Shown here: positions 34,052-57,387 of the stretch, one piece after another | How positions within the stretch are numbered: position 1 is the first letter of the stretch | Layout of the letters: the number at the start of each line of letters is the position of its first letter | Source of the DNA: Paenibacillus sp. V4I3 | GTDB taxonomy: Bacteria; Bacillota; Bacilli; Paenibacillales; NBRC-103111 | Assembly: GCF_030817215.1 (NCBI RefSeq) | Contig: NZ_JAUSZA010000001.1 | Span: forward strand, 4,190,501 to 4,254,500 | Direction of reading: 5' to 3' | Length of the DNA: 64,000 nt | Notes under the pieces: model-generated | What the model saw: only the letters and a program-made list of their open reading frames with translations | What the model was told of the DNA's origin: nothing | Database searches by the model: none | Program-made: the position numbers and the translations under genes

Positions 34052-35887
34052 ATGCGTGGAAGTAATCTATGGGTGGTTTTCGGGAAAATCCGATCCTTAT
34101 TTTCCAAAATCCGAATCATGCTTCTCTTCAGTTATTTCATTATTATTCTTATATGCATAGCATCGGTAGGAGCTATTTCCTTCTATATTTCTTATCGCTC
34201 CGTGTTGGAGCAGGTAGAGTCGTCAAGTTTTCAAATCGTTCGACAAATAGAAAAAAACATGGATAATGATTTTCAAAACAAACGGAACCTTCTGCTGGCC
34301 CCTTATTACAGTACGGAATATATAGATGGGATTAATGCTTATGCGACAATGGATGAACAGGATCAATTCCAGTTTAGGCAAAAGCTTGAAAACTTATTTC
34401 TGAAAAGCTTCAACATCACACCAATCAGGGATTTTATCCGATTTCAAATTTATTACAGTAACGGAGAAATGTTGAATGCATCGGATAATCAGAAGTCTTG
34501 GAATGCCGAAGAAGTGCAGCAATCCGACTGGTTCCGCAAGACGGTAGACAATGATGGCCGTGTGCATTTTAACGGTCCGACTAAGGAAGCGATTTCTGGA
34601 AGCGATAATACCGCTTATTCATCGTCCATTTTAATTCGAGATTTTGCTAATCCCGACTATTTTATTGTTGTACGCGCGGAATACAATGCTGAATTGTTTC
34701 ATCTAATTGGTCAGAATGATAGTCTTTCCACGAACAGCAAATTGCTTGTTTTAGATCAAAATAATCAACCCATATACGCCTCTTTTGAGCAGTCTGAGCC
34801 TGTTCTCCCTAAAGAGATACTATCACGTATCACAAACGGCAGTGGAAAGTTCTGGTATGGTGGCGAGCAGGACAACTTGCTTGTTACGTATACACAGTCG
34901 GATTATTCCAATTGGAAAGTCGTACTTGTTATGCCTAAGAAGGAAATATTCGGTTCTCTGGATCGAATCAAAACGGCAACACTACTTACAGCGCTGATAG
35001 CCTTTTTAGTCACTATTTTTATTTCCTTTTTGTTCGGACAACGAATTACTAATCCAATACTGGACTTATATAAAACGATCAATCGAGTGAAAAGAGGCGA
35101 CTTCTCGGTTCGTGTCCAAGTTACGAGAAGCGATGAAATCGGAAGAATCGCGATGAACTTTAATGACATGCAGGTAGAACTTCAAAAGCTAATAGAATCC
35201 AAATATATATACCAAATTAAGCTTCAGCAAGTCGAGCTTGCTATGCTCTATTCACAAATTAATCCGCATTTTCTATACAATACGTTAGATAGCATTAAGG
35301 CAATGGCCGATTATTACGAGGTCGAGAAAATCGGAGACATGGCTCAGTCACTAGCAGATATGTTCCGCTACAATATCAAAAATAAGGATGAAATGGTTAC
35401 CCTACGTGAAGAGTTGGAACAAATTGATTCTTATATGAAGATTCAGGGAATCCGTTTCGAGGACAAAATTACCTATATCCAGGAAATTGAGGACGAGTTG
35501 CTCGATTACCCGCTGTTGAAAATGACGCTGCAGCCTATTGTGGAGAATGCCGTGTTCCATGGCGTGGAGCCGAAGATTGGGAAAAGCACGATTCGATTGA
35601 TTGCTCACAAAGAAGGTGAATCTTTACTCATTACAGTAAGTGATGATGGGGTCGGTATTTCGGCAGAGAGACTGAAGGCGTTGAGAAACGAGCTGAAAAA
35701 GCAGCGATTGTCAGAAGATATGCCTGTTTCTGCTGCGGGCGGAGGCATTGGTATTCGCAATGTGTACGCCAGGTATGCAATCCGTTTAGGCGAGCAATTC
35801 GAATGTAAAATAGAGAGTGAAGCGGGAAAAGGGACCCGTGTAACCCTCATGATTTCATCATGGAACTTGTTGAGGACGAATAATTAA
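34052..35887 (+). CDS. Sensor histidine kinase, YesM-like
   Basis: A 611-aa two-component sensor. Membrane helix 1 (about residues 23-45, MLLFSYFIIILICIASVGAI) and helix 2 (about 305-327, TALIAFLVTIFISFLFG) flank a Cache-like extracellular domain. A HAMP linker (RITNPILDLYKTINRVKRGDF) follows. The His_kinase domain holds the phosphoacceptor in INPHFLYNTLDSIKAM, and the HATPase has LQPIVENAVFHGV and SDDGVGIS. The ribosome site GGAGGG is 12 bases upstream, a little far. Its partner is surely the response regulator at 39113, with the importer between them. Confidence 0.93.
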   Translation: MRGSNLWVVFGKIRSLFSKIRIMLLFSYFIIILICIASVGAISFYISYRSVLEQVESSSFQIVRQIEKNMDNDFQNKRNLLLAPYYSTEYIDGINAYATMDEQDQFQFRQKLENLFLKSFNITPIRDFIRFQIYYSNGEMLNASDNQKSWNAEEVQQSDWFRKTVDNDGRVHFNGPTKEAISGSDNTAYSSSILIRDFANPDYFIVVRAEYNAELFHLIGQNDSLSTNSKLLVLDQNNQPIYASFEQSEPVLPKEILSRITNGSGKFWYGGEQDNLLVTYTQSDYSNWKVVLVMPKKEIFGSLDRIKTATLLTALIAFLVTIFISFLFGQRITNPILDLYKTINRVKRGDFSVRVQVTRSDEIGRIAMNFNDMQVELQKLIESKYIYQIKLQQVELAMLYSQINPHFLYNTLDSIKAMADYYEVEKIGDMAQSLADMFRYNIKNKDEMVTLREELEQIDSYMKIQGIRFEDKITYIQEIEDELLDYPLLKMTLQPIVENAVFHGVEPKIGKSTIRLIAHKEGESLLITVSDDGVGISAERLKALRNELKKQRLSEDMPVSAAGGGIGIRNVYARYAIRLGEQFECKIESEAGKGTRVTLMISSWNLLRTNN

Positions 35888-36001: not shown

Positions 36002-37363
36002 ATGAGAAAAATGAAAACGGCTTTGTCCATGTTAACGGTTTGTCTGGCAGCTAGTTCATTTACAGGATGCAGTAGTAACAGTGGCACTATAGGAACACCA
36101 GAAGCAAGCAAATCAGCAGCAGCGACGAACACGCCAATTAGCACAGCAGCTCCGACGAAAGATCCTGTCACTCTTACGTTTGTAATTCCCAATACAGTGG
36201 ATGCTGTTCCTTTTAACAAAATATTCGAAGCTTATCAAAAGCAAACTGGCAATAAGGTCGAATTACAAGCTTTACCTGGTGGGGACTTCGATAATATGAT
36301 GAAAACGCGGTTTTCAACAGGCGATTTCCCTGATTTATTTTTGATGCAGCCAGGTACGAAGCAGAACGTCAAATTAAGGGCCGAGGAAACGCTTCATGAA
36401 TGGAGTGCAGATACAACTGTATGGGATCGAATCATTCCATCGATGAAAGAATTCCAAACAACGCCGGACAAAAAGATATATGGGGTTCCATTCGGGGCTA
36501 CGGGGATGATGGGGGTTTATTACAACAAAGATGTATTTGGTAAGGTTGGCGTTCAGCCGCCTAAAAACTATGCAGATTTAATTGAGACAGCCAAGAAGAT
36601 AAAAGCTACAGGCGTGACACCTTTCTATGAAGGAGTGAAGGATGGATGGCCGGCGCAAATCTTTTATTTGACAGGTTGGGTATCGGGCGTAGATCCGGCT
36701 ATTGGCGATGAAGGCGTTCAGAAACTGGAAAAAAATCAACTCGGTCTTGCGGATATTCCGCAGGTGAAAGATTTATTTGCAAAGCAGAAAGAATTGAAAG
36801 ATCTCGGCTTATATCAAGATAATTTGATGGCGGGAACGTATGACGAAATGCAAAGCAAGATAGGTGATGGTAAAGTAGCCATGGTGTTTATGCTCGATGG
36901 TATTATTCCACAACTGGAGAAAAAATTCAGCAAAGATTTTGTGAAAGATCACATGGGGTTCTTTCCATTCCCTTCGGCGAATGATGCAGGTACAGCATTG
37001 ATCACGCCTCCGAACCAATTAATGGTGCCTGAGAAAGCGAAACATTCGAAAGAGGCTGTCGATTTGATCAAGTTCATGGTTACTCCGGATATGGTCAATT
37101 TGTACTACCAAATAGCGCCTGGTATTCCGATCTTTAAAGATGCTAAAAGTGAATTGTATCCTGTGCAACAAACGGTAAAAGGCTTAATTGATACTGGAAA
37201 AGCAAAAATCAACGTCCAAAACCGTCTAACGCCAACATTTGCTGATTTCCAAAAAACGCTGCAAAACTTCTTCATTAATGGCAATGTAGATGCGGCAGTA
37301 AAGGAATTCGATGCCAATTATAAAAAAGACGGTAAGTCCAAACGTTTAGCAGGATTCGAATAA
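36002..37363 (+). CDS. Extracellular solute-binding lipoprotein (CUT1, MalE-like)
   Basis: A 453-aa sugar receptor. Signal peptide MRKMKTALSMLTVCLAASS with lipobox FTGC, Cys about residue 23. The N-lobe phrase NKIFEAYQKQTGNKVELQALPGGDFDNMMKTRF and the hinge region VPFGATGMMGVYYNKDVFGKVG are typical of family-1 solute-binding proteins. It belongs to a different subgroup from the receptor at 27808, so the two importers are not recent duplicates. AAAGGAGGG precedes ATG. Expression is probably set by the cre-like site and the flanking YesM/YesN pair. Confidence 0.92.
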   Translation: MRKMKTALSMLTVCLAASSFTGCSSNSGTIGTPEASKSAAATNTPISTAAPTKDPVTLTFVIPNTVDAVPFNKIFEAYQKQTGNKVELQALPGGDFDNMMKTRFSTGDFPDLFLMQPGTKQNVKLRAEETLHEWSADTTVWDRIIPSMKEFQTTPDKKIYGVPFGATGMMGVYYNKDVFGKVGVQPPKNYADLIETAKKIKATGVTPFYEGVKDGWPAQIFYLTGWVSGVDPAIGDEGVQKLEKNQLGLADIPQVKDLFAKQKELKDLGLYQDNLMAGTYDEMQSKIGDGKVAMVFMLDGIIPQLEKKFSKDFVKDHMGFFPFPSANDAGTALITPPNQLMVPEKAKHSKEAVDLIKFMVTPDMVNLYYQIAPGIPIFKDAKSELYPVQQTVKGLIDTGKAKINVQNRLTPTFADFQKTLQNFFINGNVDAAVKEFDANYKKDGKSKRLAGFE

Positions 37364-37388
37364 CGCCAATTTTAAGGAGGGGGAGGCA

Positions 37389-38258
37389 TTGGGGAAAAGC
37401 AAGTATCCACTCTATTTTTCATTTCCTGCTCTGGCTGTTTTTCTGGTGTTTTTTATAACTCCAACCCTCATTGGGTTTTATTACAGCTTCACCGATTGGA
37501 ACATCAATGCCAAGGATATTCGGTTTATAGGCTTTCAAAACTATGCGGCGATCTTTCAAGAGCCGAGACTTACAACCGCTTTGTTCAATACGTTAATCTT
37601 TGCGGCTGCTGTAACGGTACTGCAGAACGTATGTGGTCTTGGCTTAGCGCTCATTCTCAATGAAGCTCTTGTGCTGCGCAATGTGCTGCGGATGATATTT
37701 TTCCTTCCTTATGTGATAGCTCCGATCATCATTGGTTATATTTTTCGTGCTATTTATCATCCTGAGCATGGGATTGTGAATCAGATTCTTGAGCAGGTTG
37801 GGCTTGCCGCACTTGCGCATGATTGGCTGAACGATCCGAAGTATGCGCTGTTTTCCATTATTGTGACGGATATATGGCGTGTAGCTGGATTTTCTATGGT
37901 CGTCTATTTGGCGGGACTTCAGTTCATTCCGAAAGATTTAACGGAAAGCGCTTCGATGGATGGAGCGCAATACTGGAGTCGGTTCCGACATATTATTTTC
38001 CCGCTGCTGGCACCAGCTTTTACCGTTAATGTATTACTTTCCATGATTGGTTCTATGAAAGTGTTTGAAATGGTTATGGTACTTACAGAAGGTGGACCGG
38101 GATATACGACAGAAGTGTTTTACACTTATATTCGCAGTATGTTCAGTTCAGGAGAGTTCGGTTATGCGACAACGGTTAACGTCGTGTTGTTCATCTTAGT
38201 TACTTGTATCGGTGTGCCGGTACTGATGAAGATGAAGAAACGGGAGGTGGAGATGTGA
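37389..38258 (+). CDS. CUT1 sugar ABC transporter permease (MalF/UgpA-like)
   Basis: A 289-aa permease with six membrane helices, opening FSFPALAVFLVFFITPTLIGFYYSFTDWN. The EAA loop is ESASMDGAQYWSRFRHIIFPLL. The C-terminal half contains VFEMVMVLTEGGPGYTTEVFYTYI, very typical of UgpA-like subunits. TTG start with GGAGGGGGAGG upstream. Its stop overlaps the start of the next permease by four bases (GTGA). Confidence 0.92.
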   Translation: MGKSKYPLYFSFPALAVFLVFFITPTLIGFYYSFTDWNINAKDIRFIGFQNYAAIFQEPRLTTALFNTLIFAAAVTVLQNVCGLGLALILNEALVLRNVLRMIFFLPYVIAPIIIGYIFRAIYHPEHGIVNQILEQVGLAALAHDWLNDPKYALFSIIVTDIWRVAGFSMVVYLAGLQFIPKDLTESASMDGAQYWSRFRHIIFPLLAPAFTVNVLLSMIGSMKVFEMVMVLTEGGPGYTTEVFYTYIRSMFSSGEFGYATTVNVVLFILVTCIGVPVLMKMKKREVEM

Positions 38259-39076
38259 GACAACGGCGCAACATGCTTATTGAGCTCGAATTGGTGGCTA
38301 TCTGTTTGGCACTGATGATCCTCATCCCCTTTCTGATGATCCTCGTCAACTCGTTCAAAGATATCCGCGAATCAGCGCTGTTTGGTTTATCCCTCCCACG
38401 AGAGTGGCACTTCAGCAATTATAAGGAAATCTTTGTTCAGGCGCATATTGTACGCGGGTTCATGAACAGCTTCCTGATTTCGGGCTGCGTGGTGCTTTCA
38501 GTTAATGTGTTTGCATCTATGGCTGCTTTCATTATTCAACGAAGAGACGACCGTTTTTTGCGTACGGCGTACTATTTATTCATCATGGGCCTAATCGTGC
38601 CTGTTTCCATCGTACCGACCATCAAGCTAATGGGTGATTTGCACATTCGAGGAACGTACTTCAGCCTAATCATGTACTACACGGCCGTATTGCTCCCCTT
38701 TGCAGTATTTCTGCTAGTAGGATTCATGAAGTCAATCCCACGAGAGCTGGACGAAGCGGCGCTTCTGGAGGGCTGCGGTTATTTCCGATTGTATGTTCAA
38801 ATCATTCTTCCGCTCATTATTACTGTGCTTGTAACGGTCGCGATCGTTGTCATGGTATCGGTTTGGAACGATTTTTTCGGCCCTTTCTATTTGATGACAG
38901 ACAGCACGAAGTGGACGATTGTGCTCCAAATTTTTAATTTTGTTACGATGTACAGCACGAATTGGGGCGTTGTGTTCGCTTTTATGGTCGTCGTCGTAGC
39001 TCCGATATTACTTATTTATTTGTTTCTGCAAAGGTACATTATTGATGGTTTGACTGCTGGTTCTCTGAAGGGATAA
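38255..39076 (+). CDS. CUT1 sugar ABC transporter permease (MalG/UgpE-like)
   Basis: A 273-aa partner permease. Helices are seen from ELVAICLALMILIPFLMILVNS onward, with PREWHFSNYKEIF after the first and the EAA loop EAALLEGCGYFRLYVQIILPLI. It ends FLQRYIIDGLTAGSLKG. The GTG start at 38255 overlaps the previous stop and has GGGAGGTGG upstream; the frame open from 38204 is within the other permease. As with the first importer, no ATPase gene is nearby. Confidence 0.92.
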   Translation: MRQRRNMLIELELVAICLALMILIPFLMILVNSFKDIRESALFGLSLPREWHFSNYKEIFVQAHIVRGFMNSFLISGCVVLSVNVFASMAAFIIQRRDDRFLRTAYYLFIMGLIVPVSIVPTIKLMGDLHIRGTYFSLIMYYTAVLLPFAVFLLVGFMKSIPRELDEAALLEGCGYFRLYVQIILPLIITVLVTVAIVVMVSVWNDFFGPFYLMTDSTKWTIVLQIFNFVTMYSTNWGVVFAFMVVVVAPILLIYLFLQRYIIDGLTAGSLKG

Positions 39077-39112: not shown

Positions 39113-40702
39113 ATGCGAAAGGTAGTCATTGTCGACGATGAAATATGGATCCGCAGAGGACTTATTCAATCTATACCCTGGGATCGTTTCGGTCTCAGGC
39201 TTGTTGGAGAGGCAGGAGACGGGGAAGAGGCGCACACGATCGCGCTTGCCGAGAAACCGGATCTTCTTTTTCTGGATATGCGAATGCCTGGACTGGACGG
39301 CAAACAACTGCTCGGAATGCTGCATCGTGATTTACCGGATTTATTAACGATCGTCGTAAGCGGGTATTCCGACTTTGAATATACGAAAGAAGCTATCCGA
39401 CAGAAAGCATTTGATTATTTATTGAAACCAGTTAAAAAAGATGAGCTAGTCTCTGTGCTGGAGAGGGCAGTAGCAAAGATGAAACAGCAGGAAAAAAAGA
39501 AGAGCACATGGCAGTTTGACAGTAAGGAAGACTGGCTTCAACGAGTTTTGTACCATGCGGTCACAGATGTAGAAGCTCATGAGAATGAGGAAGAAATTCC
39601 TCTTCCTGAAGGTTGGTCTTGCGGCGAAACCTATGTGATGGTCGGGCAGCGCGATACATTTCGAGATGGATGCGAGTCAAACAAACTTGTTGGGCAACTG
39701 CGGGAACTGTTAAACCGGAACAAACCATTCTTGTTCGGGGGAGAATGGAACTTCGTCGTAACAACCTCACCGGAAGCAAATTGGGAATTCGTTATCACTA
39801 TCGTCGGTGAGCGACTGCAGTTAGAGGAAATGAATAAACTATGTCAGCTCGTCCAAAGGTTGCTCAAACAATTGGAAATGGGCAGCTACAGCTTGGGCAT
39901 CGGCTTGAAAAAAAAGGATGCCCACTATTTACGGCGTGCTTATCTGGAGGCCGGGCAAGCACTGAAAAAGAAAAGGCTGGGTGTGTCAGGTACCGTCCTT
40001 TGGGCTGATAATGACATGAGTAAGCAACGGGTTAATTATCCTCAGGAGAAGGAAAATGCTTTTCTCCGTTCCCTTCAAATGGGCAATAAGGAAGGGGCTC
40101 AGCAAGAATCAGACATGCTGTTTGCCGCAATTAGTGAGGATTCAATGACTGTAGATCATTTGCAGAGGAGCGCCTTTTTGCTCGTCCACTCTATCGAGAA
40201 ACAGCTTCGAGGAACGGAAAATCGGCTAGAGGAAGTATGCGGTAAAAATCCGCAAATGTATACAGAGATGATCCAGCACCGGAACGATGCGGCATCCGTA
40301 AAACGGATTTTCGATGAAGAGATCATTCCCTCTGTGCTCGCGTACTACAAACGTTCGCGTGAAAAGCAGGGCAAGAAGATTGTCCGTATGATTCAGAATA
40401 TGATAGAAAATAACTATGATCAGCCGCTTTCCCTTCATCAGATTGCTGAAAGTCATTACATGAACACGGATTATGTAAGCCGTTTATTTAAAAAAACGAC
40501 AGGTCACAATTTTGTTGATTATATGACGGATTTCCGGATTAATAAATCGAAAGAACTGATGAAATTGTCTACCTATAAAAATTACGAGATTGCGCAAATG
40601 GTTGGCTACGAGGACTACCGATATTTTAGTCAAATCTTTAAGAAAAAAACAGGCATGACCATTGGTAAATATCGGATAGCCGCCGAAACTGCTAATCATT
40701 GA
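39113..40702 (+). CDS. Response regulator, YesN-like (REC plus AraC HTH)
   Basis: A 529-aa regulator. The receiver domain (1-120) shows VVIVDDEIWIRRGL, phosphoacceptor Asp in LLFLDMRMPGLDG, VSGYSDFEY and LLKPVKKDEL. A long linker region without clear family follows. The C-terminal AraC-type HTHs are LSLHQIAESHYMNTDYVSRLFKK and EIAQMVGYEDYRYFSQIFKKKTGMTIGKYR. It pairs with the kinase at 34052 and probably activates the operon it lies in, sensing an extracellular glycan fragment. Confidence 0.93.
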   Translation: MRKVVIVDDEIWIRRGLIQSIPWDRFGLRLVGEAGDGEEAHTIALAEKPDLLFLDMRMPGLDGKQLLGMLHRDLPDLLTIVVSGYSDFEYTKEAIRQKAFDYLLKPVKKDELVSVLERAVAKMKQQEKKKSTWQFDSKEDWLQRVLYHAVTDVEAHENEEEIPLPEGWSCGETYVMVGQRDTFRDGCESNKLVGQLRELLNRNKPFLFGGEWNFVVTTSPEANWEFVITIVGERLQLEEMNKLCQLVQRLLKQLEMGSYSLGIGLKKKDAHYLRRAYLEAGQALKKKRLGVSGTVLWADNDMSKQRVNYPQEKENAFLRSLQMGNKEGAQQESDMLFAAISEDSMTVDHLQRSAFLLVHSIEKQLRGTENRLEEVCGKNPQMYTEMIQHRNDAASVKRIFDEEIIPSVLAYYKRSREKQGKKIVRMIQNMIENNYDQPLSLHQIAESHYMNTDYVSRLFKKTTGHNFVDYMTDFRINKSKELMKLSTYKNYEIAQMVGYEDYRYFSQIFKKKTGMTIGKYRIAAETANH

Positions 40703-40722: not shown

Positions 40723-42447
40723 ATGGTAAGACGACTTATTCCCGATACTCTGATGCTGGAAGAACGAGCAGGACATGCTATTAATGCCATGGTGGGGATG
40801 GCTGACAAGGATCACAATTATATTCCGTTCTTTAATGCGGATCTGTTACACAAGCCTGCTTTTATGACACATGGTGATTGGGATTACGGCTCTTCGCATG
40901 GCAGGATGATTGATGGCTTGATTCTTGCAAGGCATATGTCGGGGGAAACATTCGGTAAGGATGTAGAGGAGCATTACCGTGCTAACTTGCTCTCCTTCTT
41001 TAAAGAGGATGGCATGAGCTACCGCCAAAGCAATCCCACCCGTAATTGGGAGCCAAACGCTAATCTGATCGATCAACGTGCCGTTATTTTATCTTTGACG
41101 ACATGGTTTATGGAAACAGGTGACCCGAAAGTAAAGGAAGCAGCAGACCGTCATGTGGCAGCGCTGAAAAGAATTGCTATCAAAGAGCGCGATGTTTGGT
41201 ACTATCCGGCATCCGAATACAAAGAAACAGGTTGGCCTTCCGCTAATGGCGTGCAGCTGAGGCTCGCTCCAGATCCGGCTGCGTTCTGTGGCCGATTGGT
41301 CATGCCGCTCTTGAAATATCACGAATTGACAGGGAATCAGGATGCTTATGATTTGTGTCAGTTTTTCACGGCTCTGATCATAGAGCGCAGCGGCGTCTTT
41401 CATCCGGATGGCAGCTTTAACGATTCGTTGGCTTACCGCAGCGGTCATTTCCATACGCGTCTGGGCACACTCGATGCAATTGCCCGATTCGGTACCTTCA
41501 CGGGCGATGCGGCGATGATCAGTTGGGTGAAGAAGTGCTACGATTGGGCGCTAACCAAATGCACGGCGTTTGGCTGGACGCCTGGAGATTTGCATGAACA
41601 AGCTTATGAGCATGAAACTTGCTCCCTTGTGGATTTGATTGCGACAGGAATAACCCTGGCTAAGAGCGGTTACGTGGAGTACTGGGGAACGGTAGAGCGC
41701 TTCCTGCGCAACCATTTGACGGAATCACAGCTTCTGGATTTGGATTGGGTTGAACAGACAGATGATAAATCGAATGACATTCCAGCTAACAAGTCATTTT
41801 ACAAAGTGGCCGAGCGTACACGGGGATCTTTTGCCGGCTATTCAGCTCCTAACGATTTCATAAGCGATGTAAATGAAGGCCGGGGACATACGAGCGATTT
41901 GCAATTATGCTGTCTCGGTTCAGGCACGCGCGGACTGTTCATGGGCTGGAGTAACAGCATCACCGAGAAAAATGGGGCAATCAGCATCAACTTCCTCCTG
42001 AACCGAGGCTCCAAATGGCTTGATGTGAGCAGTTATTTGCCGCATGAAGGCAAAGTCATTATTGATGTTCATATGGATGTGCCACGACTTCAAATTCGGA
42101 TTCCGGAATGGGCCGGTTTTACGAAAATCCGCTTTACTCGCGAGGTTCATGGTCAGGTTACGGAAGGAAAAGGTAGCGAGGAGAGCAGATGGGTCAATAA
42201 GCATTTCCTACTGCTAGGTCCAGCAACTGCCGGGGAAAAAATTACGGTAACTTTCCCTCTCAGCTTCCGCAAAACATTGGAAAACGCCGTGGGTCAGACG
42301 TTCGAAGCGGAATGGCGCGGTGATGATGTCGTGAATATTACGCCAAAAGGCGAGAAGAAGCCGCTCTACAGTGGTCGTAAAGTATACAATGAGGCACCGA
42401 TGCGTGAAGGCGATTACCGCAGGTTGGAGAAAGAATTTGTGTGGTAG
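40723..42447 (+). CDS. GH127/DUF1680-like (alpha/alpha)6-barrel protein
   Basis: A 574-aa cytoplasmic protein. The N-terminal two thirds are helical repeats with conserved aromatic pockets (HGDWDYGSSHGRMIDGLILARHM, RNWEPNANLIDQRAVI, EYWGTVERFLRNHL). A beta-sandwich follows, with LQLCCLGSGTRGLF, then IRIPEWAGF. The order helix barrel, CC-containing strand, then RIPEW-type strand matches DUF1680/GH127 beta-L-arabinofuranosidases, but the match is distant and the zinc-Cys set of GH127 is not fully apparent. It sits between the regulator and the acid-sugar genes, in the same operon. Function is open. Confidence 0.6.
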   Translation: MVRRLIPDTLMLEERAGHAINAMVGMADKDHNYIPFFNADLLHKPAFMTHGDWDYGSSHGRMIDGLILARHMSGETFGKDVEEHYRANLLSFFKEDGMSYRQSNPTRNWEPNANLIDQRAVILSLTTWFMETGDPKVKEAADRHVAALKRIAIKERDVWYYPASEYKETGWPSANGVQLRLAPDPAAFCGRLVMPLLKYHELTGNQDAYDLCQFFTALIIERSGVFHPDGSFNDSLAYRSGHFHTRLGTLDAIARFGTFTGDAAMISWVKKCYDWALTKCTAFGWTPGDLHEQAYEHETCSLVDLIATGITLAKSGYVEYWGTVERFLRNHLTESQLLDLDWVEQTDDKSNDIPANKSFYKVAERTRGSFAGYSAPNDFISDVNEGRGHTSDLQLCCLGSGTRGLFMGWSNSITEKNGAISINFLLNRGSKWLDVSSYLPHEGKVIIDVHMDVPRLQIRIPEWAGFTKIRFTREVHGQVTEGKGSEESRWVNKHFLLLGPATAGEKITVTFPLSFRKTLENAVGQTFEAEWRGDDVVNITPKGEKKPLYSGRKVYNEAPMREGDYRRLEKEFVW

Positions 42448-42474: not shown

Positions 42475-43131
42475 ATGAAGACTGTTGTAGCTGTCTATAC
42501 CGGCCAAGGTTTGGCCGACCCGCTCAAAGCGGTGTTTAAGGAACTGCTCCCGGATTGCAGGCTTGTGAACATTATCGATGATAGCCTGATTGGCGATGTG
42601 GTGCAAGCAGGGCATGTTCCGCCGGGAGTGGCACGAAGATTAATCCAGTATTTTCATCATGGAGAAGAAATTGGAGCCGATGTGATCCTGAATACATGCT
42701 CCTCCGTAGGCGAAGTTGTTGATGATGCGCGCCGACTCATCGGTGTACCCATTGTGAAAATTGATGAATCCATGGCAGCAGCGGCTGTTAGCTATGATCG
42801 TATCGCAGTGCTGGCGACTCTGCCATCAACATTGGAACCTACGATGCGGCTCATACAGAAGCAAGCAGAGGCAGCTGACCGACAAGTGACGCTCGTCAAT
42901 GGACTTGCTGAAGGCGCATTTGATGCGCTTGTTGGCGGTAAACCTGAGGAACACGACCGCATTTTGTTGGAGACGGCAAAGCGGATTGCAGATGCGGCTG
43001 ACGTGCTTGTACTAGCACAGGGTTCGATGGCACGCATGGAACAGAAACTCAAAGAATTAACCGGTAAACCGGTGCTCTCTTCTCCTCGAATGGGCGTTGA
43101 AGCAGTTAAAGCTTTGCTGGAAAAAGCATAA
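42475..43131 (+). CDS. Aspartate/glutamate racemase-superfamily protein with one catalytic cysteine
   Basis: A 218-aa protein with the two-domain racemase fold. The first active-site Cys is present in ILNTCSSVGEV (Cys75). The second, which true racemases place in a VLACT/AQCS-type turn, is Gly183 in VLVLAQGSMARM. A two-base racemisation is therefore unlikely; relatives with one Cys are decarboxylases, isomerases or of unknown role. Two adjacent ATGs (42472, 42475) follow GAGGAGG; the second has better spacing. It is immediately upstream of the RuBisCO-like gene, suggesting a step in the same acid-sugar route. Confidence 0.75.
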   Translation: MKTVVAVYTGQGLADPLKAVFKELLPDCRLVNIIDDSLIGDVVQAGHVPPGVARRLIQYFHHGEEIGADVILNTCSSVGEVVDDARRLIGVPIVKIDESMAAAAVSYDRIAVLATLPSTLEPTMRLIQKQAEAADRQVTLVNGLAEGAFDALVGGKPEEHDRILLETAKRIADAADVLVLAQGSMARMEQKLKELTGKPVLSSPRMGVEAVKALLEKA

Positions 43132-43163
43132 CAGTAGCAAGCATAGCAGAGGGGAGAGGCAGG

Positions 43164-44423
43164 ATGAATCAAGAACGTGTTAGGGCTACCTATCTGGTAG
43201 AAACGCCATATTCTTTAGAACGTGCAGCAGCGACGATTGCTGGGGAACAATCAACGGGTACCTTTACATCTGTCCCAGGGGAAACGGATGAATTAAAAGC
43301 GAAGTACGGCGTAATTGTTGAACATATAGAACAGCTTGCAGAAGTAGATATACCTTCCTTACCGGGAGCGAAGCCGCCCGCTGGGCATGACGGCAAGTAC
43401 CGTCAAGGGCGCGTAACGGTCTCATTTCCGCTGCATAATTTTGGCCCTTCGATTCCTAACTTGCTTGCAGCGGTAGCCGGAAATCTGTATGAACTCCAGG
43501 AACTCTCAGGACTACGTCTATTGGATCTGGATTTACCGCAATCGTTTACGACCCGCTATCCTGGACCGAAGTTTGGCATTGCAGGCACTAGAAAGCTGAC
43601 TGGGGTGTATGATCGACCCATTCTAGGCACAATTATTAAGCCAAGTATAGGGTTATCTACGGAACAATTGTCAGAACTCGTAAAGAAGCTTGCTCTAGCA
43701 GGGATGGATTTTATCAAAGATGACGAGTTGAATGCAAATCCTCCGTGTGCTCCCTTGGAGCAAAAAGTAAAAGCGGTTATGGAAGCCGTCGAACGAGCTG
43801 CGGACGCTACCGGTAAGAAGATGATGTATGCTTTTAATATTACAGGTGACATTGACGAGCTTCGCCGAAATCATGATCTCGTCGTGAAATCAGGAGGCAC
43901 ATGCGTTATGGTCAGCATATTGAGTGTGGGACTGAGCGGCCTTGCTTACTTGAACCAGTACAGTGAAGTGCCGATTCATGGTCATCGTAATCAATGGGGG
44001 ATGCTGACAAGGAGCCCCCTGCTCGGCATAGAATTTACCGCATATCAAAAATTATGCCGTCTGGCAGGTGCCGACCATCTTCATGTCAATGGCTTTAACA
44101 GCAAATTCTATGAAAGCAACGAATCCGTATTGCGTTCTATTCAAGCTTGCACATCGCCGTTATTAGGCGGGTATCATTCGATGCCTGTCATTTCGTCTAT
44201 GCAGTGGGCGGGGACAGCTCCAGTCACCTATGAGGCTACACGTTCCGTTGATGTGATGCACTTGGCCGGTGGCGGCATGCTCGCACATCCAGATGGTCCA
44301 GCAGCAGGATTTGAGAGCATGAAGCTCGGCTGGGAGGCCGCTGTACAAGGATTTTCTCTTGACAGCTATGCTAAGCAGCACCCGCCGCTTCAACGTGCGA
44401 TAGAGAAATACGGGAGAGGTTGA
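43164..44423 (+). CDS. RuBisCO-like protein (form IV), probable acid-sugar phosphate enzyme
   Basis: A 419-aa homologue of the RuBisCO large subunit. The carbamylated-lysine/metal motif is intact, GMDFIKDDELNAN (Lys185, Asp187, Glu188), and Lys159 in GTIIKPSIGLS corresponds to RuBisCO Lys175. The next catalytic lysine (Lys177 in spinach numbering) is Ser161, so CO2 fixation is excluded in practice. Loop-6-like NGFNSKFYES keeps a Lys (314), and the phosphate loop LAGGGMLAHPDGPAAG is recognisable. Adjacency to a DUF1537 kinase is a known signature of 3-oxo-isoapionate-4-phosphate enzymes (OiaX/OiaT) of D-apiose catabolism. That role is inferred; MtnW-type methionine salvage is less likely here. 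Confidence 0.85.
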   Translation: MNQERVRATYLVETPYSLERAAATIAGEQSTGTFTSVPGETDELKAKYGVIVEHIEQLAEVDIPSLPGAKPPAGHDGKYRQGRVTVSFPLHNFGPSIPNLLAAVAGNLYELQELSGLRLLDLDLPQSFTTRYPGPKFGIAGTRKLTGVYDRPILGTIIKPSIGLSTEQLSELVKKLALAGMDFIKDDELNANPPCAPLEQKVKAVMEAVERAADATGKKMMYAFNITGDIDELRRNHDLVVKSGGTCVMVSILSVGLSGLAYLNQYSEVPIHGHRNQWGMLTRSPLLGIEFTAYQKLCRLAGADHLHVNGFNSKFYESNESVLRSIQACTSPLLGGYHSMPVISSMQWAGTAPVTYEATRSVDVMHLAGGGMLAHPDGPAAGFESMKLGWEAAVQGFSLDSYAKQHPPLQRAIEKYGRG

Positions 44424-44430
44424 AGCGCCT

Positions 44431-45849
44431 ATGAACGGGATGAAGCTAGTCGATAATCAGGATCAGGCTCAAGATCAGATTAAGCGATTGTTATGTTATT
44501 ATGGTGACGATTTTACCGGGTCAACTGATGTACTCGAAGCTTTGTTTCAGGCAGGGTTGAAAACGATCTTGTTTCTGGAGCCACCTTCACCGGAAATGCT
44601 GCGGGAGCAGTTTCGAGACGTGGATTGTTATGGGGTGGCGGGTGTGGGACGGTCTTTATCACATGAAGAGATGGAGAAGGAATTACGTCCGTTGTTTACA
44701 ACGATGAAGATGACCGGAGCGGTTGTTGTGCATTATAAGATATGCTCAACGTTTGATTCTTCACCTGATATCGGAAGTATCGGAAAAGCGATGGAGATCG
44801 GCAGGGATGTATTCGGTGGACGTTATGTGCCTTTATTAGTGGGCGTGCCCTATTTACGAAGGTATACACTCTTTGGCAATCATTTTGCGGCAGCAGGAGA
44901 GCGCATACATAGGCTCGACCGCCATCCTACGATGTCGCAGCATCCCGTGACTCCGATGGTAGAAGCGGATATACGGAAGCATTTGCAAAAGCAAACGAAA
45001 ATGCAAACTTCATTGTTTGATATTTTAGCGCTTGAAGGACCCGATGTAGAGGTGCATGGGAAATTAGAGCAATTAATTGAAAACGAACGGCCTGATGTCG
45101 TGTTATTCGATGTTCTGGATGAGCCTCGATTAGAAAAAGCAGGCCGTTCGATCTGGCAGGAAGCGAATGATGGCGAGGGATTGTTTGTAGTCGGCTCATC
45201 AGGTGTTGAATACGCGCTCAATGCTTGCTGGAAAGCAGATGGTATCTTACCACCCGCAGAGCAAGATGTAGTTGCGGTTGAATCTGTCGATCGTCTTTTA
45301 GTGGTGTCGGGCAGCTGCTCACCAGTTACAGATAAACAAATTCAGCGTGCTTTGGAGGCAGGATTCACCGGAATTCGGGTTCCGATGAATGAATTGATCC
45401 AACCGGAGCTGGCTCAGGAAGCGCAGTTGCGATTGCAGCAAGAGGCGCGATCGGTGCTGGAGAGCGGTCGAAGTGTGGTACTGTATACAGCCTCGGGACC
45501 ACAAGACCAGACGATTGCTCTCATTCGTGAAACGCTTGCTGCACAAGGGCTTAAGGCCGAAGACAGCGGGCGTCTGCTGGGCAAGGCGCTTGGTATGCTG
45601 ACCAGAGAATTAGTGGTAGAGACAGGTCTTTCTCGCATTCTTATCGCTGGCGGGGATACATCAGGCTATATAACCCGTGAGTTGGGTATTTATGCACTAG
45701 CCTGTAAGGCGGCGCTGGAGCCTGGTGGACCTTTATGCCGTGCATATTCGACAGAGGCGCAGTTTGACGGTCTGGAGCTTGTACTGAAAGGCGGTCAAGT
45801 CGGTGGTGAGAATTTTTTTGAGAAGGTAAGAGTTGGCACGTCATTGTAA
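44431..45849 (+). CDS. DUF1537 four-carbon acid-sugar kinase family protein (OiaK/OtnK-like)
   Basis: A 472-aa two-domain kinase. The N-terminal substrate domain opens [20 protein letters not shown], where the DDFTGS loop binds the sugar acid. The C-terminal nucleotide domain holds [21 protein letters not shown] and the [14 protein letters not shown] glycine-rich loop. The family phosphorylates acids such as threonate, erythronate, 3-oxo-tetronates or 3-oxo-isoapionate. The start lies 7 bases after the RuBisCO-like gene, so they are co-translated. It is longer and clearly different from the second DUF1537 gene at 54116, indicating distinct substrates. Confidence 0.88.
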
Positions 45850-45926: not shown

Positions 45927-48209
45927 ATGGATAAAATTTGGTTTCGGCAGCCGGCTGCCGAATGGAACGAAGCGCTGCCGATTGGGAATGGCAGGCTGGG
46001 GGGCATGATTTTTGGCAAGGTTGCCAAGGAAAAAATTCAGCTGAACGAGGATTCGGTTTGGTATGGGGGACCGAAGGAACGCGACAATCCGGATGCCCTG
46101 CAGCATCTTCCGCAAATCCGTCAATGGATCGCGGAAGGGCAAATCCGCAAAGCGGAGCAGCTTGCGGTAATGGCGCTTTCTGGCGTCCCGGAGGGGCAGC
46201 GCCACTATATGCCGCTCGCCGATTTGACGCTGGCGTTTACCGGTCACGAAGATGAGGTCGAAGATTATCTGAGGGAGCTTGACTTAAGTACTGGCATCGC
46301 ATCCGTATCTTACCGAACGGGCGGTGTTCGTTATAAACGCGAGATGCTTTCAAGTCACATCGATCAGGTGTTGGCGGTTCGGCTGGAGGCTGACAGGCCT
46401 GGCGCCTTATCGTTAACCGCGCGTCTGATGCGGGGCGAGAAAAATAAGTATGCAGAACAAATAGGCAGGCTGTCCGATCACAGTATTGCGATCCGAGGCA
46501 ATTGCGGCGGCGGTGGTTCCGAATTTTGTGCCGTATTGTTTGCGGAGGCTCAAGGAGGCGCCGTCAGCGTTATCGGTGAACATTTGATCGTGGATCGAGC
46601 CGACAGTTTGACACTCTACATAGCGGCAGCCACCTCATTCCGTTACGAAGATCCGGAGGCAGTATGCGTCAGACGGGTAGAGGAAGCGGTATCGAAAACG
46701 TACCCGCGGTTGAAGGACGACCATCAGGAAGACTTCGGACGTCTGTTTGACCGAGTTTCCTTTAAGCTGGAACCCCCTTCGGAAGAAGCTAAGGATTTAC
46801 CAACAGATAAGAGGCTTGAGCGGGTTCGCGAGGGCGGCGAAGATTCAGGGATCATCCCGCTCTATTTTCAATATGGTCGGTATTTGCTCATATCCAGCAG
46901 CCGTCCAGGCTCCTTGCCTGCCAACTTGCAGGGTATTTGGAATGATAAAATTGAGCCGCCGTGGGACAGCAAATATACGATCAATATTAATGCTCAGATG
47001 AATTATTGGCCTGCGGAAACATGTAATTTGTCGGAGTGCCACGAGCCACTGTTCGACCTGATCGAGCGGATGCGCGAGCGCGGACGGAAGACCGCACAAA
47101 TCATGTACGGCTGCCGAGGATTCGTTGCGCATCACAATACGGATATTTGGGGCGATACTTCTCCGCAGGACATATATATTCCGGCAACGTACTGGCCGAT
47201 GGGCGCTGCATGGCTTTGTTTGCACCTGTGGGAGCATTTCGAATTTGGCGGCGACCGCGAATTTTTGCTGCGAGCTTATGAAACGATGAAAGAATCGGCA
47301 TTGTTCTTTCTTGACTATTTAATAGAAACTCCGGACGGCAGGCTGGTGACCTGCCCATCCGTATCGCCGGAAAATACGTACGTGCTGCCAAATGGGGAAA
47401 GAGGCTGCCTCACTATGGGACCGGCGATGGATAATCAAATCTTACATGCTTTGTTCTCAGGATGTATTCGGGCAAGCGAATTGTTGGAAGCGGATGAAGC
47501 GCTGCGGGAAGAGTGGATTCATGTCCGCAGTCGGCTTCCGGAGCCGAAAATCGGCCGTTACGGCCAACTGCAGGAATGGCTCGAGGATTACGAAGAGAAG
47601 AAGGCCGGACACCGGCATATTTCCCATCTGTTCGGACTTCATCCCGGCAGTCAAATTAACGTTCGGGAAACACCGGCATTGGCCGAGGCAGCGCGCAAAA
47701 CGTTGGAGCGCAGACTTGCACACGGAGGCGGGCATACCGGTTGGAGCCGGGCGTGGATCATCAATTTCTGGGCTCGTCTGGAAGACGGAGAGGCCGCATA
47801 TGAGAACGTCATGGCTCTGCTAAGCAAATCGACACTGCCGAATCTGCTTGATAACCACCCTCCGTTTCAAATCGATGGCAACTTCGGGGGAACTGCGGGC
47901 ATCGCCGAAATGCTGCTGCAAAGCCATGCCGGAGAACTTCACTTGCTGCCGGCGCTGCCAATGGCATGGTCGGACGGAGAAGTGAAGGGACTGAGGGCAC
48001 GAGGGGGCTTTGAGGTGGATATCAAATGGAGGAGCGGAAAACTCGAAACGGCCGAGGTACGATCGCAGCTCGGTGGTATTTGTCGTCTTCGAACGAGTGT
48101 CGAAGTTCGTATAGTTGGAACTGAACTCTTAAAAGATTATTCGTTATTGGATCAAGTGGTGTGGTTTAAGACGGTCCCCGGAATGGCTTATGTCATCGAG
48201 TCGGTCTAA
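45927..48209 (+). CDS. GH95 alpha-L-fucosidase/alpha-L-galactosidase
   Basis: A 760-aa inverting glycosidase. It has the N-terminal sandwich ([28 protein letters not shown]), the helical barrel and a C-terminal sandwich. Active-site features are [12 protein letters not shown], containing both catalytic Asn, the general-acid region around SPENTY, and the base-type Asp in [18 protein letters not shown]. No signal peptide is present, so it acts on imported oligosaccharides. ATG at 45927 has GGGAGG 6 bases upstream; the longer frame from 45873 lacks support. GH95 members act on fucose or, with small changes, L-galactose, as in rhamnogalacturonan-II. Confidence 0.92.
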
Positions 48210-51262: not shown

Positions 51263-52267
51263 TCATTGACGAAAGACATCTTGCGAGGCGGCCACACTAA
51301 TCGTTCGGAACTCTTTAGCGTAATTTTTTGTCGGATCGCCATCCTTATAGGGTCTGCAGGAGCAATAGAAGTGATATAGCACGCCATTATGCGTAATGAC
51401 GGAAGGCTTATGGGCAAAAATGGAGTCGATGGTTCCCTCTTCTCCAACGTGAATGATCGGATCGGGATATTTGTCCCAATGTAAAAGATCCTTCGAAAGC
51501 GCAATCCCTTCTTGTGCTTGCTTGTAATTATAGCCAAAGAAATACATAACCCATTGGTCTTTATCCTGTAAAACACAAGGGTCGCTGACAAAACCAGAGT
51601 CCCATCTTTCCGGAGAGACACATAATATGGGGTTTTGCTCGTATCTTTGCCAATGCATCAGGTCAGTGGAGAGAGCAACGCCTGTCTGTTCGATCCATTT
51701 CCCCTTATTCGTGTTTTTGGCATTATAAAACAAATAGAAAGTGTCATCATGTTCAATTAGGCATTCCTTGTATAAACCGCCTTTTTCCCAATCCGCACCT
51801 GCCTCCGGGGTTAGAATCGGATCAGAGTATCTGTGCCACTCCAGCAGCTGTTCATCTTCCGTCCATGCGATTCCGATTTTTGCCGAACCTTCTTCGTACC
51901 CGAACTCAGGATAGGCGTGATAGAGCAGCCAGTATTTGTTGTTCCATTTCTTGAGCAATGGTGGAGCATCGATCTGATTTTCCTTCAAGATCCATGTTCC
52001 TGCTATATTTTTCGAATCCCAGCCTGAACCTTCATCTCGTCGTAAAATCACACTTAGGTGATCCCAGTGTAACAGGTCTTTGCTTGTGGCCAAGGCTGTT
52101 TGATAACCCGTACCGTCAAACCCTACATACATCATGTAAAACTTATCGTTATGCTGAAAGACAAAGGGGCAATCAACAGCACGTTCATCAAAATGACCGG
52201 GGACGCCGGATCCGACAAGCACCGGTCTACCCAATTTATATGGTGTTACATAGGGCCCAATATTCAT
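51263..52267 (-). CDS. Five-bladed beta-propeller glycosidase-like protein (GH43/GH32/GH130 fold)
   Basis: A 334-aa protein built of repeated blades, each with an F/Y-Y-M/L-F/Y strand and a SKDLLHWD hairpin: DKFYMMYVGF...ATSKDLLHWDHL, KYWLLYHAYPEF, TFYLFYNAKN...STDLMHWQRY, QWVMYFFGYN...SKDLLHWDKY. Acidic residues near the blade starts (DERAVDCPF, DAPPLLKK, DSGFVSDPCV) could be the catalytic set, as in GH43/GH32, but the family is not certain. Start at 52267 has GAGGAG 10 bases upstream. Co-transcription with GH78 suggests removal of an arabinose, xylose or galactose unit next to rhamnose. Confidence 0.75.
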   Translation of the reverse strand: MNIGPYVTPYKLGRPVLVGSGVPGHFDERAVDCPFVFQHNDKFYMMYVGFDGTGYQTALATSKDLLHWDHLSVILRRDEGSGWDSKNIAGTWILKENQIDAPPLLKKWNNKYWLLYHAYPEFGYEEGSAKIGIAWTEDEQLLEWHRYSDPILTPEAGADWEKGGLYKECLIEHDDTFYLFYNAKNTNKGKWIEQTGVALSTDLMHWQRYEQNPILCVSPERWDSGFVSDPCVLQDKDQWVMYFFGYNYKQAQEGIALSKDLLHWDKYPDPIIHVGEEGTIDSIFAHKPSVITHNGVLYHFYCSCRPYKDGDPTKNYAKEFRTISVAASQDVFRQ

Positions 52268-52356
52268 CGTTTTCACACTCCTCAACTGTGGTTAGAACTT
52301 GTGACAGATGTAACTTATTTTAAGATTACTATCATACATCTTCCTACTGAGGGGGG

Positions 52357-55417: not shown

Positions 55418-56433
55418 AACCAATTATTGGAATTACAATGGGCGATGCATCAGGCATCGGACCTGAAATAATCGTGAAAGCGCTGCATCATGCTCCGGTA
55501 TACGAAACCTGCCGTCCGCTCGTGATTGGCGACCCCGTTATGTTGAAACGGGCTCTTCAGATCGTGGGAGGTTCGGCTTCCATACATACAGTGTCAGGAC
55601 CACCAGAGGGGCGTTACGAATACGGCAGCATCGATTGCTTGGATATACGTCTGCTCCCACCGAATCTTCCATTCGGTAAAGTATCCGCCGATGCGGGACA
55701 CGCCGCTTATAAGTTCGTTGAGAAAGCAGTGGAATTGGCGTTAGCCAGGCAAATTGACGCCATATGCACCGCCCCGTTAAACAAGGAGGCTCTGCATAAG
55801 GGTGGTCACCTATATCCGGGTCATACGGAAATATTGGCAGGATTGACGAGTACCGAAGACTATTGCATGATGCTCACTGCCCCGAAGCTGAAGGTCATAC
55901 ATTTGACTACACACGTCGGATTAATTCAGGCGATCGAGATGATCGACCCGGAGCGGACATACAAAGTGATTAAGCTGGCGCATGAAACGTTACGGAGGGC
56001 TGGAAATGATAGACCGCGTATCGCCGTTTGCGGGATTAATCCGCATGCAGGGGAGAATGGCTTGTTTGGGAACGGGGAGGAAGAACAGAAACTGATTCCC
56101 GGCATCATGCAGGCAGCGGAAGAAGGTGTGGACGTTACCGGCCCTTATCCAGCGGATACACTATTTTATCGGGCTGTTTGCGGGGATTTTGACATTGTAG
56201 TGGCTTGTTATCATGATCAAGGACATGTTCCGATCAAAGTGCTCGGCATTGAAGCAGGCGTGAATATCACGATCGGGTTGAACGGAGGCATCATCCGCAC
56301 CTCAGTCGATCATGGAACGGCCTTTGACATTGCCGGTACAGGTAAAGCGGATGAACGAAGTATGTTGGCAGCGATCCGCTCTGCGATTGAGCTTGCGCCC
56401 AAACGGATTGACAACCTTTCACAAAACATATAA
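55414..56433 (+). CDS. pdxA2: PdxA2-type 4-phospho-acid dehydrogenase
   Basis: A 339-aa metal- and NAD-dependent beta-decarboxylating dehydrogenase, homologous to 4-hydroxythreonine-4-phosphate dehydrogenase. GITMGDASGIGPEI opens the protein. The three metal histidines lie in YPGHTEIL, LTTHVGLIQAIE and ACYHDQGHVPIKVLG, and FVTVGLN-type binding is seen in NITIGLNGGIIRTSVDHGTAFDIAG. The ATGA overlap with the DUF1537 kinase fixes its role as sugar-acid phosphate dehydrogenase rather than vitamin B6 synthesis. Confidence 0.9.
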   Translation: MKPIIGITMGDASGIGPEIIVKALHHAPVYETCRPLVIGDPVMLKRALQIVGGSASIHTVSGPPEGRYEYGSIDCLDIRLLPPNLPFGKVSADAGHAAYKFVEKAVELALARQIDAICTAPLNKEALHKGGHLYPGHTEILAGLTSTEDYCMMLTAPKLKVIHLTTHVGLIQAIEMIDPERTYKVIKLAHETLRRAGNDRPRIAVCGINPHAGENGLFGNGEEEQKLIPGIMQAAEEGVDVTGPYPADTLFYRAVCGDFDIVVACYHDQGHVPIKVLGIEAGVNITIGLNGGIIRTSVDHGTAFDIAGTGKADERSMLAAIRSAIELAPKRIDNLSQNI

Positions 56434-56474
56434 CCGATGCATTCTACTATCCGATCCATACAAGGAGAGATACG

Positions 56475-57368: not shown

Positions 57369-57387
57369 TCAGGATGAGGTGTTGAAG

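What the first reader, a model, noticed from the sequence alone, without database searches (positions are those of the whole stretch)
42475..45849. RuBisCO-like protein, DUF1537 kinase and one-Cys racemase-fold protein in one operon
The three genes are contiguous in a regulated glycan-uptake operon. The RuBisCO-like protein keeps the carbamyl-Lys/Asp/Glu metal site but has Ser in place of the Lys177-type base. DUF1537 kinases next to RuBisCO-like proteins are known from D-apiose/apionate breakdown (3-oxo-isoapionate kinase with OiaX/OiaT). Neither the apionate oxidoisomerase nor lactonase is in the window, and the racemase-fold protein takes a position where an isomerase would be needed. This may be a variant or new acid-sugar pathway in Firmicutes.
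Basis: partly seen in the sequence, partly recalled or inferred. Interest (0 to 1): 0.78.

Follow-up and report, generated by a model that had tools for sequence, protein, structure and literature searches.

The report
Candidate aceric acid breakdown operon
Soil bacteria carry a conserved four-gene unit, including a relative of the carbon-fixing enzyme RuBisCO, that most likely releases and breaks down aceric acid, a rare branched acid sugar of the plant pectin RG-II; nothing has been assayed yet.

Summary
The trio is real: racemase-fold protein (42475-43131), RuBisCO-like protein (RLP, 43164-44423) and DUF1537 kinase (44431-45849). The unit has a fourth member just upstream (40723-42447), a divergent GH127-like glycosidase keeping the E-x-C...CC zinc/cysteine site. 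All four occur in 22 of 22 Paenibacillus/Cohnella loci of this RLP clade. RLP and kinase resemble OiaX and OiaK but miss both NCBIfam cut-offs; ApnO and ApnL are absent and were found in none of 36 loci with the racemase. In Bacteroidota/Verrucomicrobia, 9 of 9 genomes with a related RLP carry a GH127 like BT_1003, the RG-II aceric acid hydrolase. RG-II-type GH137 genes accompany the module. Best reading: aceric acid is released, isomerised to a ketose acid by the one-cysteine racemase fold, phosphorylated on C1 and decarboxylated by the RLP to a 5-deoxypentulose 1-phosphate, which an aldolase would split.

The parts
34052..35887 (+). sensor histidine kinase, probably sensing the glycan fragment
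   Evidence: ORF; homologues (cluster 6) in 17 of 41 sources clustered; function inferred from sequence, no family scan run
36002..39076 (+). sugar ABC transporter: binding protein 36002-37363 and two permeases (37389-38258, 38204-39076)
   Evidence: only the binding protein was scanned; ligand unknown
39113..40702 (+). response regulator with AraC-type DNA-binding domain
   Evidence: Pfam Response_reg, HTH_18
40723..42447 (+). divergent GH127-like glycosidase, proposed aceric acid hydrolase
   Evidence: no Pfam hit; Foldseek top 11 hits of a low-confidence model are all GH127; profile alignment E 3e-5, probability 73.5%, ETC and CC motifs aligned; E298, C300, C396, C397 invariant in 21 of 21
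42475..43131 (+). Asp/Glu-racemase-fold protein with one conserved Cys, proposed aldose-ketose isomerase
   Evidence: Pfam PF01177; fold model pLDDT 94; C75 invariant; chemistry inferred
43164..44423 (+). RuBisCO-like protein of the OiaX-like clan, proposed decarboxylase
   Evidence: NCBIfam OiaX 456.8 bits, cut-off 700; tree; KDDE and Ser at the 177 position
44431..45849 (+). DUF1537 kinase of OiaK-like type, proposed to phosphorylate the C1 hydroxyl of the ketose acid
   Evidence: NCBIfam OiaK 500.1 bits, cut-off 700
45927..48209 (+). GH95 glycosidase, same strand, 77 nt downstream if the ATG at 45927 is the start (start uncertain); optional neighbour
   Evidence: Pfam GH95 (scanned from 45918); cluster 19 in 4 of 41 sources
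51263..52285 (-). GH137-like enzyme, RG-II chain B type beta-L-arabinofuranosidase
   Evidence: NF049877 178 bits, below its cut-off of 1800, which is set for a 1400-aa two-domain protein; PDB 5mt2/5mui 109 bits; co-occurrence

Best explanation
The operon is a salvage route for aceric acid (recalled structure: 3-C-carboxy-5-deoxy-L-xylose), the branched acid sugar of RG-II side chain B (position recalled). Proposed steps: (1) the GH127-like enzyme hydrolyses the aceric acid linkage; (2) the one-Cys racemase-fold protein moves the carbonyl from C1 to C2 (aldose to ketose), a single acid/base Cys being enough for a same-face proton shift; the product is a beta-keto acid; (3) the DUF1537 kinase phosphorylates the C1 hydroxyl; (4) the RLP decarboxylates CH2OP-CO-C(OH)(COO-)-CHOH-CH3 through a Mg-bound enediolate to a 5-deoxypentulose 1-phosphate. 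That substrate differs from the OiaX substrate 3-oxo-isoapionate 4-phosphate (structure recalled) only by CHOH-CH3 in place of CH2OH; (5) a class II aldolase encoded elsewhere gives DHAP and acetaldehyde. Shown by sequence: gene conservation, family relations, active-site residues, co-occurrence. Inferred: every reaction, the substrate and the order of steps.
For: Four genes in 22 of 22 clade A loci. In 104 family genomes the glycosidase occurs in 34, all among the 38 with an OiaX-like RLP and in none of the 66 without; 38 of 38 glycosidase loci have the RLP within 16 kb. Clade C (Bacteroidota/Verrucomicrobia): a GH127 within the fetched stretch in 6 of 9 loci and elsewhere in the genome in the other 3. 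The one of L048 is closest among solved structures to 5mqo = BT_1003 (812.9 bits, next 386), an aceric acid hydrolase (figure legend in PMC10850190); the other eight are 47-97% identical to it, and all nine share with 5mqo a Gln at the acid/base position and an SPDG insertion, while nine other GH127s fetched in that search have Glu. In 291 genomes of one order, 8 of 8 with the clade C-like RLP have this GH127 against 17 of 283 others, p 9.3e-10. GH137-like genes go with the module. Racemase and ApnO/ApnL in one locus: 0 of 55 loci compared. In three Bacillota genomes with the glycosidase, the racemase (53-56% identical) sits beside a GH137-like gene and split transketolases, with no RLP in the stretch fetched, which fits the racemase as the first step before two different endings.
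Against: No assay. Pfam does not place the window glycosidase in GH127; its model has mean pLDDT 55, and VIA-align ranks other alpha6-barrels first. Racemase-superfamily enzymes normally act next to a carboxylate; aldose-ketose isomerisation would be new for them to my knowledge. The BT_1020-like RG-II family (PF24067) is absent from the window's genus, 0 of 30, and its link to the RLP across the family is weak (8 of 38 against 5 of 66, p 0.047; counting also six weak matches 9 of 38 against 10 of 66). Kinase not found within the stretch in 4 of 9 clade C loci, racemase not in 1 of 9. No aldolase in the operon. 17 of 283 genomes have the BT_1003-type GH127 without this RLP. Clade C RLPs group with apionate-type RLPs rather than with clade A, so a shared substrate would need convergence or gene exchange. 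Outside these loci the racemase family often has neither RLP nor DUF1537 kinase nearby (8 of 12 Bacillota loci; 3 of 4 plasmid loci).
Confidence: 0.55

Rival explanations
1. A D-apiose/D-apionate variant: the RLP and kinase are OiaX and OiaK and the racemase-fold protein replaces ApnO in making 3-oxo-isoapionate.
For: Best NCBIfam hits are OiaX and OiaK; apiose is also in RG-II (PMC12282258 passage).
Against: Both scores far below cut-off, though that cut-off is narrow; no lactonase or oxidoisomerase; ApnO does an oxidation plus a group shift (recalled), which a cofactor-free racemase fold should not do; five loci carry a sugar isomerase, split transketolase and FGGY kinase beside the module that match what I recall of the apulose 4-phosphate transketolase route for apiose; the GH127 link has no place in this reading.
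Confidence: 0.12
2. A linear sugar acid route: the racemase-fold protein turns a 2-oxo acid into a 3-oxo acid (the OtnI role, recalled), the kinase phosphorylates it and the RLP decarboxylates it.
For: Outside RLP loci the racemase family is found near DUF1537 kinases in a Deinococcus plasmid, in the own genome at 3.745 Mb and in 4 of 12 Bacillota loci fetched, some with aldolases, so a general 'oxo-acid isomerase before a DUF1537 kinase' role is plausible.
Against: No dehydrogenase is part of the conserved four-gene unit; the tight link to a GH127-type glycosidase is unexplained.
Confidence: 0.15
3. Same substrate, but the RLP splits the phosphorylated keto acid (transcarboxylase/hydrolase, like the enzyme I recall as OiaT) instead of decarboxylating it.
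For: An RLP with transcarboxylation/hydrolysis activity on 3-oxo-isoapionate 4-phosphate is reported in PMC6302742 (passage); no such sequence was available for the tree.
Against: Closest curated model is OiaX.
Confidence: 0.1

Closest known systems
OiaX / OiaK of D-apionate breakdown (Carter et al. 2018, recalled; cited in PMC6302742)
   Same: RLP plus DUF1537 kinase side by side; KDDE site, Ser at the 177 position; a phosphorylated beta-keto acid is the expected substrate
   Different: about 42-44% identity to the RLPs that listed plasmid records label oiaX; below both NCBIfam cut-offs; no ApnL or ApnO; racemase-fold protein and GH127-type glycosidase instead
BT_1003, GH127 aceric acid hydrolase of Bacteroides thetaiotaomicron
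   Same: closest solved relative of the L048 GH127 of clade C; shared Gln at the acid/base position and insertion
   Different: the window enzyme is a far more distant GH127-like protein of 574 aa without a Pfam match
Asp/Glu/hydantoin racemase superfamily
   Same: fold and first catalytic Cys segment
   Different: second Cys position is Gln; no racemase substrate expected; found with sugar-acid kinases
3-oxo-tetronate route (OtnI, OtnK, OtnC; recalled)
   Same: isomerase, DUF1537 kinase, decarboxylase logic
   Different: RLP in place of OtnC, racemase fold in place of OtnI, branched substrate proposed
MtnW (methionine salvage RLP)
   Same: RLP fold
   Different: separate branch of the tree; the genome's other RLP (4158118-4159290, taken as MtnW from its neighbours, not scanned) is 33% identical

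Membership tests
OiaX (NF042437) | score above curated cut-off 700 | tested here: not met
   456.8 bits; six relatives tested, 455-519 bits
OiaX (NF042437) | decarboxylates 3-oxo-isoapionate 4-phosphate | not testable with these tools
   needs assay
OiaK (NF042436) | score above curated cut-off 700 | tested here: not met
   500.1 bits
D-apionate pathway | ApnL and ApnO encoded with OiaX/OiaK | tested here: not met
   no tblastn hit in the window or in 22 clade A loci
RuBisCO-like proteins | RuBisCO large-chain domains with metal site kept and a key catalytic lysine replaced | tested here: met
   Pfam; KDDE, Ser at the 177 position
MtnW | above the MtnW cut-off / falls with MtnW in a tree | tested here: not met
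   TIGR03332 184 bits, cut-off 513.6; tree with one candidate MtnW
OiaT | groups with OiaT in a tree | not tested
   no OiaT sequence at hand
GH127 (window 40723-42447) | Pfam PF07944 match | tested here: not met
   no family at E 0.001
GH127 (window 40723-42447) | Zn-binding Glu and three Cys including the nucleophile | tested here: met
   invariant in 21 of 21, aligned to the GH127 motifs
GH127 (window 40723-42447) | alpha6-barrel plus beta domains as in GH127 | tested here: inconclusive
   Foldseek top 11 are GH127, E 1e-11 to 6e-9, but pLDDT 55 and VIA-align lists other barrels first
BT_1003-type aceric acid hydrolase (clade C GH127s) | closest to BT_1003, with its sequence marks | tested here: met
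   L048 protein against the PDB; the others by identity to L048 and by the motif
BT_1003-type aceric acid hydrolase (clade C GH127s) | releases aceric acid | not testable with these tools
   needs assay
Asp/Glu racemase superfamily | Pfam PF01177 and fold | tested here: met
   71.6 bits, cut-off 31
two-Cys racemases | two catalytic Cys | tested here: not met
   one conserved Cys
GH137 (window 51263-52285) | similarity to the BT0996 GH137 domain | tested here: met
   109.5 bits to 5mt2, labelled Beta-galactosidase; that 5mt2/5mui are the BT0996 domain is recalled; NF049877 match below its cut-off

The most novel reading that the evidence does not exclude
This is the first catabolic pathway for aceric acid, and it contains two enzyme functions not on record to my knowledge: a one-cysteine racemase-fold aldose-ketose isomerase and an RLP that decarboxylates a 5-deoxy branched keto acid phosphate; some other Bacillota use the same isomerase but finish with a dedicated split transketolase that cleaves the ketose acid to 3-hydroxy-2-oxobutanoate and a two-carbon unit.
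Probability: 0.4. Interest if true: 0.85.

Novelty: new variant of a known kind. Interest (0 to 1): 0.72.

Why it matters
RG-II is among the most complex plant polysaccharides, and aceric acid occurs, as far as I know, only there; how bacteria use it is to my knowledge an open question. The module gives a concrete, testable enzyme set, a new reaction for the RuBisCO superfamily, a possible new chemistry for the Asp/Glu racemase fold, and a divergent cysteine-nucleophile glycosidase family without a Pfam match.

Tried and rejected
MtnW: rejected by cut-off and tree. Plain OiaX/OiaK: not met by cut-offs, although the OiaX cut-off is narrow: even L043, which carries ApnL-like and ApnO-like genes, scores 519. 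The first profile comparison of the glycosidase with GH127, on shallow alignments, gave probability 1.4% over 42 columns; deeper alignments (24 and 24 rows, some near-duplicates) gave 73.5%, E 3e-5. VIA-align does not list GH127 among its 50 rows. BT_1020-like enzyme as an RG-II marker: weak association; six of the 19 matching genomes, all over the curated cut-off but with short matches of E 1e-7 to 1e-5, were dropped before that count; with them it is 9 of 38 against 10 of 66. The GH137-like count uses a cut (best match 67% identity or more) chosen after seeing the gap; of all 36 matching genomes 28 carry the glycosidase and 8 do not. The 52% cut for BT_1003-type GH127 was likewise chosen at a gap (25 of 35 listed genomes); with all 35 the overlap with the clade C-like RLP is still 8 of 8. 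In one search, two of the 20 fetched GH127-like loci (L125, L126) did not match the motif pattern and were not scored. Aldolase: five Aldolase_II genes in the genome, none in the operon. Papers: no held paper joins 'RuBisCO-like protein' and 'aceric'; other searches, read as listings except the passages cited; Carter 2018 and Ndeh 2017 are not held, so absence in print is not shown.
Full report
OBSERVATION. The window is 4190501-4254500 of an 8.17-Mb single-contig genome; the locus with 97% RLP identity is a Paenibacillus. The gene immediately upstream, 40723-42447, ends 27 nt before the racemase start.

FAMILIES. The RLP scores best against the NCBIfam model OiaX (456.8 bits, cut-off 700) and the kinase against OiaK (500.1, cut-off 700). 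Neither is met, so I do not file them as OiaX/OiaK. RLPs that listed plasmid records label oiaX are about 42-44% identical over nearly the whole length (40 of 366 records listed). In a tree of 57 rows the window clade (A, 23 rows), a second Paenibacillus clade (B, 6) and a Bacteroidota/Verrucomicrobia clade (C, 9) are each one clade with 100/100 support, apart from the genome's other RLP (taken as MtnW from its neighbours) and from two archaeal RLPs. The order among A, B and the rest is partly unresolved, and C lies with apionate-type rows. The metal site KDDE is present in all 53 OiaX-like rows; the residue at the Lys177 position is Ser in 44, Asn in 8 and Ala in 1.

CONSERVATION. One genome-contig scan gave 40 loci. 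By tblastn over 55 loci, 22 of 22 clade A loci carry glycosidase, racemase, RLP and kinase. For clade B, 6 of 6 carry racemase, RLP and kinase (one kinase split). For clade C, racemase in 8 of 9, kinase in 5 of 9 and GH127 in 6 of 9 within the fetched stretch. In the other 18 loci the racemase was found in 0; ApnO or ApnL homologues were found in 8 of these 18 and in none of the 36 with the racemase. So the apionate enzymes and the racemase-fold protein seem to replace each other beside OiaX-like RLPs. The loci were picked by RLP similarity and are not a random sample.

THE GLYCOSIDASE. The 574-aa protein has no Pfam match and no significant PDB sequence match (best E 0.73). Its AlphaFold model is poor (mean pLDDT 55), but Foldseek's first 11 hits are all GH127 entries, including BT_1003 (E 1e-11 to 6e-9; next 4e-4). 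VIA-align instead ranks N-acylglucosamine 2-epimerase-like and other alpha6-barrels first. A profile comparison of 24 against 24 sequences aligns the E-T-C and C-C motifs of both (probability 73.5%, E 3e-5). E298, C300, C396 and C397 are invariant in 21 of 21. PMC10850190 (passages) says that one Glu and three Cys bind zinc in clan GH-P and that a Cys is the nucleophile.

LINK TO ACERIC ACID. Near or elsewhere in the genomes of the clade C loci is a GH127 of one type. The L048 protein is closest to PDB 5mqo (812.9 bits; next 386), whose title is Glycoside hydrolase BT_1003; a figure legend in PMC10850190 names BT1003 as aceric acid hydrolase. All 9 of 9 clade C genomes have it (47-100% identity to the L048 protein). 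At the acid/base position (Glu322 of HypBA1, confirmed by the E322Q mutant chain 7exu in the same alignment) 5mqo and these nine have Gln, while nine other GH127s fetched in the same search, seven of them from clade C genomes, have Glu. In 291 genomes of one order, 11 have an RLP at E 1e-100 or better. Of these, 8 are clade C-like (66% identity or more), and 8 of 8 have the BT_1003-type GH127 (52% or more), against 17 of the other 283 (p 9.3e-10); the three less similar RLPs have none.

In 104 genomes of the window's family, the glycosidase is in 34, the RLP in 38, both in 34; all 38 glycosidase loci have an RLP within 16 kb, and five of 43 RLP loci have no glycosidase on the contig. Genomes are related, so these p-values overstate independence.

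RG-II SETTING. Window 51263-52285 matches NF049877, the two-domain glucuronidase/arabinofuranosidase model (178 bits, below its cut-off), and PDB 5mt2/5mui. PMC9843283 (abstract and introduction passages) says that the GH137 module of BT0996 removes arabinose from RG-II chain B. The close form of this gene is in 28 of 104 family genomes, all 28 with the glycosidase (post hoc cut). In L047-L049 a BT_1020-like gene stands directly after the RLP, and in G097 one lies about 19 kb away; that this family acts on RG-II is recalled. In the window's own genus it is absent, 0 of 30. Five loci carry a sugar isomerase, split transketolase and FGGY kinase near the module, and L057 three of these four; I recall this as the pattern of the apulose 4-phosphate transketolase route for apiose.

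THE RACEMASE FOLD. The model is confident (pLDDT 94) and matches hydantoin, allantoin and aspartate racemases. One Cys column is conserved in 29 of 29; the second Cys of allantoin racemase aligns with Gln182, and Gln182 and Ser184 are invariant in 22 of 22. The family also occurs without RLP: in a Deinococcus plasmid between an oxidoreductase and a DUF1537 kinase followed by a class II aldolase, but with no such kinase annotated in three other plasmid loci; in the own genome at 3.745 Mb with aldolases and a DUF1537 kinase. Of 12 Bacillota loci fetched, from 18 matching genomes of 398, four (L155, L156, L159, L160) have a DUF1537 homologue in the stretch and eight do not. In three Bacillota genomes (G165, G238, G268), the only ones besides the own genome among 299 to have the glycosidase, the racemase is 53-56% identical and lies in a cluster with a GH137-like gene (58-59%) and two split transketolases, one pair 58-63% identical to the type in the Paenibacillus loci and one more distant (35-44%) next to the racemase; no kinase or RLP was matched in the 18 kb fetched. 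The glycosidase lies on another contig there, and those genomes were not searched whole for an RLP. The simplest reading is that the racemase makes the ketose acid, after which either kinase plus RLP or a transketolase takes over.

CHEMISTRY (inferred, structures recalled). Aceric acid as ketose carries its carboxylate beta to the ketone, with a CH2OH on the other side, the arrangement of 3-oxo-isoapionate. Phosphorylation and decarboxylation give a 5-deoxypentulose 1-phosphate; splitting of such a compound to acetaldehyde and DHAP is proposed for 5-deoxyribulose 1-phosphate in PMC6302742 (passage). Five Aldolase_II genes exist in the genome; which serves is unknown.

VERDICT. Observation confirmed; interpretation partly supported and extended. 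I rate the RG-II acid-sugar role as likely, aceric acid as the best single candidate (0.55), and the isomerase role of the racemase fold as the least certain step.

Noticed in passing
window 54116-58329: A second, different DUF1537 kinase followed by a PdxA homologue and two DHDPS-family genes, like the D-threonate kinase/PdxA2 arrangement (recalled); Pfam.
   Followed up: partly
G000 3745277-3745927 (L127): A second racemase-fold paralogue in the own genome beside a class II aldolase, a GH38-like gene, an Aldolase_II gene and a DUF1537 kinase (GH38 named from sequence, not scanned).
   Followed up: partly
L107-L115: BT_1003-type GH127s have Gln where other GH127s have the acid/base Glu, plus an insertion; how acid catalysis works there is a puzzle.
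   Followed up: partly
L061-L066: Second Paenibacillus module (clade B, RLP 58-60% identical, Asn at the 177 position) with an alpha/beta hydrolase, a Gfo/Idh oxidoreductase, and its own copy of the glycosidase 10-16 kb away.
   Followed up: partly
L152-L154: Racemase in RG-II-like clusters with two split transketolases and a transaldolase-like gene and no RLP or kinase nearby.
   Followed up: partly
L047, L048, L049, L056: No DUF1537 kinase matched within 10 kb of these RLPs although GH127 is there, and the racemase in three of the four.
   Followed up: no
L040, L041: OiaX-like RLP and kinase with a PhyH dioxygenase and TRAP transporter, a further context of unknown substrate.
   Followed up: no
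window 31721-33814: GH115-domain protein (697 aa) just upstream of the sensor kinase.
   Followed up: no
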